64,000 nt of DNA from Alphaproteobacteria bacterium (GTDB taxonomy: Bacteria; Pseudomonadota; Alphaproteobacteria; Thalassobaculales; Thalassobaculaceae), in assembly GCA_022822665.1 (NCBI GenBank), contig JAJEAR010000048.1, forward strand, positions 1 through 64,000, written 5' to 3'. The translations under genes and the position numbers were made by a program. This document shows, one piece after another, positions 40,370 to 43,353 of the stretch. The notes below the pieces were generated by a model. It was not told the DNA's origin, made no database searches, and worked only from the letters and a program-made list of their open reading frames with translations. The first letter of the stretch is position 1. The number at the start of each line of letters is the position of its first letter.

Positions 40370-41275
40370 ATGGTCGAACTGAAGGGCGTGATTCCGCCCG
40401 CCACCACACCGTTCGATGCCGACGGAGAGATTGCCTACCCGCTGGTGGCACGCCAGATGGACTGGTTCGCCGAAGCCGGGGTGACCGGCGGGGTGGCGGT
40501 CGGCGGCAGCACCGGCGAGGGTCATACGCTGGATGCCGAGGAGCACGTGAAGCTGATCGACACCGCCGTCGAGGCGGCTGCCGGCCGCTTTCCGGTGATT
40601 GCCGGCCTGATTACCGACAGCACCCGTGACGCGGTCCGCCGCGGCAGGTCCCTCGCCAGCCTCGGTATCGCCGCACTCCAGGTCACCCCGGTCCACTACC
40701 TGTTCCGACCCGACGACGATGCGATGGTGGAACATTTCAGGGCACTCGCCGGCGAGACCGGCATGCCGATCATCATCTACAACGTGGTGCCGTGGACCTA
40801 CCTCTCGCCGCAGCTGCTGTTGCACATCATGCGCGACGTCCCCGGCGTGGTCGGTGTCAAGCAGAGTGCCGGCGACCTGAAGCTCATGGCGGACCTGGTC
40901 ATGGACGCGGGGCCGGACGACCACATCTTCAGCGCCGTGGACGCGCTGATGTACCCGTCCTACGTCCTTGGCTGCCACGGCTCGATCGCCGCGATCCTGA
41001 CGGCCGCGCCGCAGGCCAGCGTGGCGCTGTGGGACGCGGTCCAGGCCGGTGACCATGTCGCGGCGCTCGACCTGCACCTGCGGTTGCTGCGGCTGTGGAA
41101 CGCGCTGGCGGCACCGACCGACATCCTGCCCGCGGCGACCAAGTATGCCCAGGGCCTGCAGGGATGCACCGCCGGCCTGCCGCGGGCGCCCATGTCGATG
41201 CCCGGAGACGCGCAGAAGGCCGAGATCAGGGCAGCACTGGGCGCACTCGATAGCGCGGCACTCGCTGCCGACTAG
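40370..41275 (+). CDS. Dihydrodipicolinate synthase / N-acetylneuraminate lyase family aldolase
   Basis: 301 residues from ATG 40370, with a strong GGGGAGGAG Shine-Dalgarno. A TIM-barrel class I aldolase: the GGSTGEG loop (45-51), catalytic Tyr137 (IIIYNVVP) and Schiff-base Lys164 (GVKQSAGD). The family covers DapA, sialic-acid lyase and many sugar-acid or hydroxy-keto-acid aldolases. The loop differs from the GTTGES of true DapA, and lysine-pathway genes are absent nearby, so a catabolic aldolase is more likely. It follows opgC by 34 nt and is the last gene before the AT-richer island. Confidence 0.85.
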   Translation: MVELKGVIPPATTPFDADGEIAYPLVARQMDWFAEAGVTGGVAVGGSTGEGHTLDAEEHVKLIDTAVEAAAGRFPVIAGLITDSTRDAVRRGRSLASLGIAALQVTPVHYLFRPDDDAMVEHFRALAGETGMPIIIYNVVPWTYLSPQLLLHIMRDVPGVVGVKQSAGDLKLMADLVMDAGPDDHIFSAVDALMYPSYVLGCHGSIAAILTAAPQASVALWDAVQAGDHVAALDLHLRLLRLWNALAAPTDILPAATKYAQGLQGCTAGLPRAPMSMPGDAQKAEIRAALGALDSAALAAD

Positions 41276-41601
41276 GCCGCAACGCTCACCAGGGAGAAGA
41301 GCGTACACCTGACCGGGGGCGCTGACAGTCGATGGCCGGGGCTGAGTTCGAAACGGCCCGGTCAGGTGGCGGTGCGCCAGTGGTTCGTGGTTTCACGCGC
41401 GGACGGGCACGGGACTACGACGGAACCAGGCGCGAGCCGTCTGCCGCCGTACGATCTCAACGGACCATGCTTCAAGGGCTCATCCCTTCCCGACGGGTCT
41501 GGAAAGTGCCTCCGCTCGCGCCGTCCACCAGTACCACTCGCCAGCCCTTGATCACGCCAGAATTGTAGCTGCAATACCGACACTGCTGAAGCTGGCACTC
41601 C
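41276..41601. other. Spacer before the decayed brnT
   Basis: 326 bp with no gene seen. GC falls across this stretch into the accessory island that runs to about 42,970. The last 40 bp contain the palindrome-like TTGTAGCTGCAA described separately. Confidence 0.45.
41563..41574. promoter_or_regulatory. Possible operator TTGTAGCTGCAA upstream of brnT
   Basis: A near-perfect palindrome (one mismatch) 27 bp before the brnT ATG. BrnA antitoxins bind palindromes overlapping their own promoter, so this is a plausible relic operator. Based on position and symmetry only. Confidence 0.3.
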
Positions 41602-41949
41602 ATGAACTGGACATGGGACGAGAGCAAGAGCTACGCCAACAGGTAAAAGCACAGCCTGGGTTTCGATACAGCCCAACCCGTGCTCGATGATCCTTTTCAT
41701 GCCCCGCGACCCGACCCGTATCCGCACGAGCACGGATGGCGGACCACAGGCATGATCGCGAACGTCATTGTCGATGTCCCCGAGATCCTGAAATGGGAAC
41801 ATGCGCGGCGAAGCCGGTTTTATCGTCCGGTCAAGAAGCAGATCACGTTGCGCCTGGATGCGGACGTGCTGGCCTGGTTCAAGAGCAAGGTGCCGGGCGG
41901 CCGGGGATATCAGACCGAAATCAACCGCGCCCTGCGTCAGCACCTTCAA
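41602..41949 (+). pseudogene. Fused remnant of a brnT toxin and brnA antitoxin
   Basis: From ATG 41602 the frame reads MNWTWDESKSYANR, stop (TAA 41644-41646), KHSLGFDTAQPVLDDPFHA and then PDPYPHEHGWRTTGMIANVIV, which is a BrnT N-terminal half. Without a frame change it passes into RFYRPVKKQITLRLD and AWFKSKVPGGRGYQTEINRAL, the DNA-binding C-terminal part of a BrnA-type antitoxin. The second half of brnT and the start of brnA are therefore missing, most simply by one deletion that kept the frame. The early stop would in any case silence the toxin. The frame then continues into the HEPN-like remnant. Confidence 0.75.
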
Positions 41950-42966
41950 CCCGACCCTTTAGCCGAGGCATCACAAAGACTTCCCTCCCAACGCTTTGCC
42001 ACCTACTCCCGGTTTTGGCAATTTGAGACCTGGCTGAGAACAATGGTGTATGTCGAGCTCCGTACCCGCCACGGTGACGCATGACATCACTATCTCAAAC
42101 TACCTAATTTCCGACCCTTTGAAAACGACGGGAAGCTACCGCATATACCTGCAAGTGAGCAACTGCAAACCAGCTGTATGCAGTTAGGTGACCTCCCAAA
42201 AACTATTTGGTGCAATTGGGAGTTGTTCCAACCATACCTTCCACCAAAGCAAATCTGGGATGCCAGGCTTCTTGAAGTCAACCAGGTTCGAAACAGGGTT
42301 GCCCATTTCAGGTCAGCTCACGAGAACGACCTGGATCTGGTTCAATAATTGCTCAAGGATGTAGACAAAGGGTTCTGGACCTGTTGCACTTCCTACAACT
42401 CCGACTCTTTCTTCCTTCATCCGTCCAAAGATGAAGTTGTGATCGCGTTTCTTGATCGGGATTCATTTTCGTGGGCCACCCAACATCAAACACTTTTCGT
42501 GAAAATCGACATATTGCGGCGGGAGTACTTGACGTCAACACATCGTGAATAGATAGGTGGTGAGCACGGATATTTCTATTCCGTTACGATCTTGCCAAGA
42601 GGAGATCGAAGAGTAGATTACTCTCGATTCCTTTTCTTCACACTGCCCGTTCACTCACACGTCTACCATATATGTTTGGACTACTCTCCTTGCTCGGTCT
42701 GTGTTACGTTACCTGCTGTCCTTGCAAAGACTGTCCCCATTAAGATCATTGAAGGGTTGATACACGCGGCACAAAACGCATTGCGACCGGACCGTGTCCC
42801 TAGACATTTCCAGCCTGACCCGCAACCCGCCATGGATCCGGCAGAGCATGAAAGGATAATGGCTGATCGGGTGGCCGAAGAATGGCCCGAATACGTACTC
42901 GGTCCATCCAACCCCATGACCTTTCTGTGTCCTGACATGCCATGTTTATTTCTTGGCGTGGACTAA
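41950..42966 (+). pseudogene. HEPN-like protein gene interrupted by three in-frame stop codons
   Basis: One frame, the same as the upstream brnT/brnA relic, can be read for about 1 kb: SQRFATYSRFWQFETWLR...RTRHGDA, TGA (42082), HHYLKLPNFRPFENDGKLPH...LEVNQVRNRVAHFRSAHEND...DLVQ, TAA (42346), LLKDVDKGFW...STHRE, TAG (42550), IGGEHGYFYSVTILPRGDRR...to TAA at 42966. RNRVAHF fits the R-N-x(3)-H motif of HEPN ribonucleases, which act in toxin-antitoxin and abortive-infection systems. No frameshift is needed anywhere. GC is clearly lower than in neighbouring genes, suggesting transfer. The family assignment rests mainly on that motif and on the linkage to BrnTA. Confidence 0.6.
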
Positions 42967-43353
42967 ATCCGGTAAAGGACGCGTTGCGTAGCCGTTGGAG
43001 GTCGGCCTCATTCGCCCGGAAACCAGGGACGTGTGCGAACCGCTCGGGCTGTTCGACAAGCTCGTCTCGCACCGCGTGCAAATCCTTGAGCCGGTTCGCA
43101 TGGTGTTAATGAGAAACGTGCGCGCATAGCGGATGATCTTCGCTGGAGCCGTTGACACAGCGGGGGAGAAGTCGCCCCAGCGTTCGAGGAGGCGCCGGAT
43201 CGCGTTGAGGCCGCGCTTGTGTCCCGGCAACGCACCGGATACTCGCCGCGCCGGGACATGGAGTCGGGTTTCGGGCAGGCCAGACGCACGCGCTACGCGT
43301 GGATACCCGGACCATCGTCAACCTGACTCGTCACAATATTGGAGGGTCAGGCG
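42967..43353. other. Boundary of the accessory island with no recognisable gene
   Basis: 387 bp in which GC returns to the chromosomal level. A minus-strand frame (42946-43230) contains HKRGLNAIRRLLERWGDFSP-like sequence that might be a fragment of an inactivated gene, but I cannot identify it. No direct repeat or tRNA that would serve as an attachment site was seen. Confidence 0.4.

What the first reader, a model, noticed from the sequence alone, without database searches (positions are those of the whole stretch)
41602..42966. Nonsense-only destruction of a BrnT/BrnA/HEPN locus over 455 codons
A single frame runs from the brnT ATG to a final TAA. It is interrupted by four stops (TAA, TGA, TAA, TAG) but no frameshift, while protein-like sequence (a BrnT half, a BrnA half and a HEPN motif RNRVAHF) continues between them. 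Several of the stops can be explained by C-to-T or G-to-A changes of Gln/Trp codons. Such a pattern is unusual for random decay, where indels normally appear. Explanations include recent silencing of toxic genes, targeted deamination or stop-codon readthrough.
Basis: partly seen in the sequence, partly recalled or inferred. Interest (0 to 1): 0.6.

Follow-up and report, generated by a model that had tools for sequence, protein, structure and literature searches.

The report
Ordinary decayed toxin-antitoxin/HEPN gene island
A small acquired stretch of DNA carrying a broken toxin-antitoxin pair and a broken RNA-cutting (HEPN) gene has decayed by ordinary point mutations and deletions; the apparent 'stops only, no indels' pattern disappears when intact relatives are compared.

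Summary
The frame is real: 41602-42966 reads as one frame with internal stops TAA 41644, TGA 42082, TAA 42346 and TAG 42550. It joins half a brnT, half a brnA and a nearly complete Swt1-like HEPN gene. 'Nonsense-only' is wrong. In three intact same-family operons the two halves lie 181-193 bp apart (always 1 mod 3), and in all seven intact operons read here brnA sits in the +1 frame relative to brnT. The shared frame therefore arose through a frame-changing deletion. The brnA stop and the HEPN start are also missing at their junction. No HEPN homologue examined has a detectable brnTA within about 5 kb. Within HEPN the homology stays in one frame (333 bits to 19 intact homologues) with three stops and a 13-codon in-frame gap. 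One stop replaces an invariant Trp and one a near-invariant Gln; the other two cannot be assigned. A neutral simulation gives about 4-13% for three stops and no frameshift: mildly unusual only. Other broken homologues carry frameshifts or truncations. A same-genus genome lacks the whole 2.08-kb segment between dapA and nadE. This is an ordinary relic of an acquired island; nothing supports targeted deamination or readthrough.

The parts
41278..43352 (.). Segment (about 2,075 bp) absent from the same-genus genome G001, between the convergent genes dapA (ends 41275) and nadE; AGGC at both edges (41274-41277 and 43349-43352)
   Evidence: Alignment to G001 contig C116
41277..41445 (.). Dispersed repeat starting at the island's left edge; three further partial copies in this genome (74-84% identical), none in the 36 relatives searched, G001 included
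41602..41772 (+). brnT remnant: N-terminal 57 codons, with an internal TAA at 41644-41646; C-terminal part deleted
   Evidence: PF04365 30.5 bits, profile 1-54/77; comparison with intact operons
41772..41773 (+). Junction of a frame-changing deletion (about 181-193 bp, 1 mod 3 in three relatives) that fuses brnT' to 'brnA
   Evidence: frame offset +1 in all seven intact operons
41773..41946 (+). brnA remnant: C-terminal ribbon-helix-helix half; N-terminal part missing
   Evidence: PF14384 57 bits, profile 23-67/68
41947..41985 (+). brnA-HEPN junction: no brnA stop codon and no HEPN start codon in frame
   Evidence: sequence; intact homologues
41986..42966 (+). Swt1-like HEPN gene relic, homologous over its length in one frame; stops TGA 42082, TAA 42346, TAG 42550; 13-codon in-frame gap at about 42480
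   Evidence: 333 bits to a profile of 19 intact homologues; alignment

Best explanation
The locus is a non-functional relic of a small acquired island sitting between dapA and nadE. It held a BrnT/BrnA toxin-antitoxin operon and an originally separate Swt1-like HEPN gene. Shown: the brnT C-terminus and brnA N-terminus are missing through a frame-changing deletion; brnT also has an early stop; the HEPN gene has lost its own start codon and carries three in-frame stops and a 13-codon gap. Inferred: once the island gave no benefit, unselected point mutations (mostly the usual GC-to-AT kind) and deletions accumulated. Inferred: the three pieces share a frame by chance at the two joins (roughly 1 in 3 each), and the HEPN block shows no frameshift because it died recently enough for only a few lesions.
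For: Frame-changing brnT'-'brnA deletion. No record among 72,556 plasmids has one place covering 80% of the fusion. HEPN homologues show no brnTA within about 5 kb, so the order is not a conserved operon. TGA and one TAA replace residues conserved in intact homologues. The relic departs from 6 of 40 invariant residues, against about 1 of 41 on average and 4 of 44 at most for intact homologues, the expected sign of a recently unconstrained gene. Empty site in the same genus. HEPN third-position GC 0.52 against 0.87 in dapA, as for acquired DNA. Four homologues elsewhere look broken, two with frameshifts and two with truncations. A published survey in Pseudomonas found 23% of brnTA-like loci without an intact toxin ORF (PMC7280312).
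Against: With an indel/substitution ratio of 0.10 (Agrobacterium 0.30/2.92, PMC4978911) the simulation gives only 4% for three stops and no frameshift in HEPN, and 13% at a ratio of 0.05; so the HEPN part alone is mildly unusual. The mutation spectrum was assumed. No close intact relative exists (best 42% identity), so the order of lesions and dN/dS could not be measured.
Confidence: 0.93

Rival explanations
1. Targeted deamination or another C-to-T mutator inactivated the genes by nonsense mutations alone.
For: Two of four stops align with Trp and Gln, the residues whose codons become stops by single G>A or C>T changes.
Against: The other two stops cannot be assigned. Indels are present. Unguided GC-to-AT-biased mutation gives about 69% of stops by the same changes.
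Confidence: 0.02
2. A live gene read through its stop codons (suppression or recoding).
For: The HEPN frame stays open to homology past each stop.
Against: Three different stop codons are used; 20 intact homologues have none there; the HEPN start codon, the BrnT C-terminus and the BrnA N-terminus are missing; invariant residues are lost.
Confidence: 0.01
3. The stops are sequencing or assembly errors in an intact locus.
For: Draft genome of 87 contigs; errors of this kind are known to create spurious pseudogenes (PMC11017572).
Against: Four base-call errors in 1.4 kb would be needed, plus the brnTA deletion, which point errors do not explain, plus an excess of changes at invariant residues. 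Reads were not available.
Confidence: 0.03

Closest known systems
BrnT/BrnA type II toxin-antitoxin operons with a lost toxin ORF (Pseudomonas survey, PMC7280312)
   Same: Toxin gene disrupted while antitoxin sequence persists
   Different: Here the antitoxin's N-terminal half is gone too and the two genes are fused by a deletion
Swt1-like HEPN proteins (Pfam PF18731; PMC3710099); PADLOC candidate PDC-M34B
   Same: R-x4-H motif (RNRVAH), conserved N-terminal helical region, about 330-residue length
   Different: The relic has three stops, no start codon and a 13-codon gap; its Pfam score (16.5) is below the cut-off (27.5), whereas several intact homologues pass it
Ordinary bacterial pseudogenes
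   Same: Mixture of nonsense mutations, deletions and lost start/stop signals
   Different: No frameshift inside the 978-bp HEPN block, as can happen by chance in a young pseudogene

Membership tests
BrnT toxin (PF04365) | Complete domain above the curated cut-off in an intact ORF | tested here: not met
   30.5 bits against 34.5; profile 1-54 of 77; internal TAA
BrnA antitoxin (PF14384) | Ribbon-helix-helix half above the cut-off | tested here: met
   57 bits against 26.1; profile 23-67 of 68
BrnA antitoxin (PF14384) | Own start and N-terminal half, in an operon downstream of brnT | tested here: not met
   N-terminal half deleted, fused to brnT'
Swt1-like HEPN (PF18731) | R-x4-6-H motif | tested here: met
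   RNRVAH retained; R, R, A and H invariant in 19 homologues
Swt1-like HEPN (PF18731) | Score above the curated cut-off in an intact ORF | tested here: not met
   Relic 16.5 against 27.5; intact homologues 21.1-38.4
Swt1-like HEPN (PF18731) | HEPN fold by comparison with solved structures | tested here: inconclusive
   Homologue L006 model, mean pLDDT 87.4; no significant PDB match
Swt1-like HEPN (PF18731) | RNase activity | not testable with these tools
   Needs biochemistry
Stop-codon readthrough gene | Stops conserved at the same place in relatives | tested here: not met
   0 of 20 intact homologues have a stop at the three HEPN stop columns
Nonsense-only inactivation | No indels relative to intact homologues | tested here: not met
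   Deletion of length 1 mod 3 between brnT and brnA; 13-codon in-frame gap in HEPN

The most novel reading that the evidence does not exclude
A mutator with C-to-T preference, or strong selection against HEPN toxicity, favoured nonsense mutations in the HEPN block specifically, leaving its frame otherwise untouched.
Probability: 0.03. Interest if true: 0.5.

Novelty: already known. Interest (0 to 1): 0.12.

Why it matters
It shows that an apparent 'stops without indels' pattern can be made by a deletion that happens to bring neighbouring gene fragments into one frame; only intact relatives reveal it. Otherwise it is one more case of a toxin-antitoxin/HEPN island that was acquired and is decaying.

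Tried and rejected
A first genome-contig scan with the relic alone found nothing; a profile with two plasmid homologues found 41 loci. No phage record matches. No NCBIfam match. The flanks of the island gave no Pfam match. The left-edge repeat folds no better than shuffles (z -0.5). No similar solved structure by sequence; Foldseek gave no match below E 0.001, and the second look (best Z 5.4, pterin-dehydratase-like, C-terminal part only) is within what unrelated folds give. In the neighbourhood search one BrnT query (G003) was typed with small errors; the other five queries were taken from the translations and gave the same negative. The conserved-column test used unequal thresholds and was replaced. 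A literature search for solitary or degenerate toxin-antitoxin pseudogenes with five terms found no paper.

Full report
Observation. Window 41602-42966 reads as one frame with internal stops at 41644 (TAA), 42082 (TGA), 42346 (TAA) and 42550 (TAG), ending at TAA 42964. Pfam finds a BrnT start (30.5 bits, profile 1-54 of 77, below cut-off), a BrnA end (57 bits, profile 23-67 of 68) and a weak HEPN_Swt1 match (16.5 bits, below cut-off). A small number of stops is not remarkable by itself in this GC-rich window: 45% of sampled 455-codon frames have five or fewer. The evidence that the HEPN block is real is its match to intact proteins.

Intact relatives of the HEPN gene. tblastn found a 38.6%-identical protein on an Aurantiacibacter plasmid, and a profile scan found 41 loci in bacterial genomes plus one viral contig. 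A profile of 19 intact homologues matches the relic in a single frame over nearly its whole length (333 bits); the other two forward frames give nothing. There is thus no lasting frameshift inside HEPN. There is a 13-codon in-frame gap at about 42480, which one divergent intact homologue (L026) roughly shares, so it may predate the decay, and an in-frame length difference near the C-terminus. At the stop columns, TGA 42082 aligns with Trp in 20 of 20 homologues, TAA 42346 with Gln in 18 and His in 2, and TAG 42550 lies in a variable column. The intact proteins match Swt1-like HEPN and the PADLOC candidate PDC-M34B.

The brnTA part. Three genomes of the same family have intact brnT-brnA operons. 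Measured between the residues that abut in the window, they have 193, 181 and 184 bp, always 1 mod 3. In these three, and in four plasmid operons, brnA lies in the +1 frame relative to brnT; in the four plasmid operons the two genes overlap by 11-20 bp. The window has both fragments in the same frame with nothing between them. The single frame is therefore the product of a frame-changing deletion. The brnT stop column is variable in relatives (Ala, Gly, Lys, Val, Ile), so its original codon is not resolved.

The brnA-HEPN join. Neither a brnA stop nor a HEPN start codon remains in frame at 41947-41985. HEPN homologues have no detectable brnTA within about 5 kb, so the juxtaposition is not a conserved operon. 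How these two genes came to abut is not known.

The island. In G001, of the same genus, dapA and nadE are convergent and 12 bp apart. The window carries about 2,075 bp more, 41278-43352, with AGGC at both edges. The left edge begins with a repeat that has three further partial copies in this genome and none in 36 relatives. HEPN third-position GC is 0.52 against 0.87 in dapA. I read this as an insertion in this lineage; a deletion in G001 is not excluded.

Is the lack of frameshifts in HEPN remarkable? Intact homologues were mutated in silico with a GC-to-AT-biased spectrum until three stops arose. The median was 59 substitutions; 69% of stops came from C>T or G>A. The chance of no frameshift by then was 13% at an indel/substitution ratio of 0.05 and 4% at 0.10; Agrobacterium has 0.30/2.92, about 0.10 (PMC4978911). 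The spectrum is assumed, so these are rough. Since the locus was picked from a long window because it looked odd, this is not strong evidence of anything special. The relic departs from 6 of 40 invariant residues (intact mean about 1 of 41, maximum 4 of 44), as expected for a gene that lost constraint not long ago. Four homologues elsewhere look broken by other lesions: frameshifts in L025 and L027, truncation in L029 and apparently L030, whose contig ends nearby.

Verdict. Ordinary decay of an acquired island explains the data; deamination, readthrough and sequencing error are not supported, though reads were not available.

Noticed in passing
41277-41445: Dispersed repeat of at least 169 bp with three further partial copies in this genome (contigs C86, C70, C10) and none in 36 relatives; the C86 copy lies near serine-recombinase-like gene fragments (named by eye).
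   Followed up: partly
41680-42084: A 134-codon ORF (GTG start) still spans the BrnA ribbon-helix-helix half; a truncated DNA-binding protein could in principle still be made.
   Followed up: no
L104 300-900: Rhizorhabdus wittichii plasmid pDC08 has an intact brnA preceded by only the C-terminal end of a brnT: another decayed brnTA locus.
   Followed up: no
L017 1458-8857: A Swt1-like HEPN homologue sits between a helicase-like and a DUF1156-like methylase-like gene (named from sequence by eye, not by a search), resembling a defence operon.
   Followed up: no
L006 model residues 155-335: The HEPN homologues carry a confidently predicted C-terminal alpha/beta part with no clear match among solved structures in the whole-model search.
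   Followed up: partly
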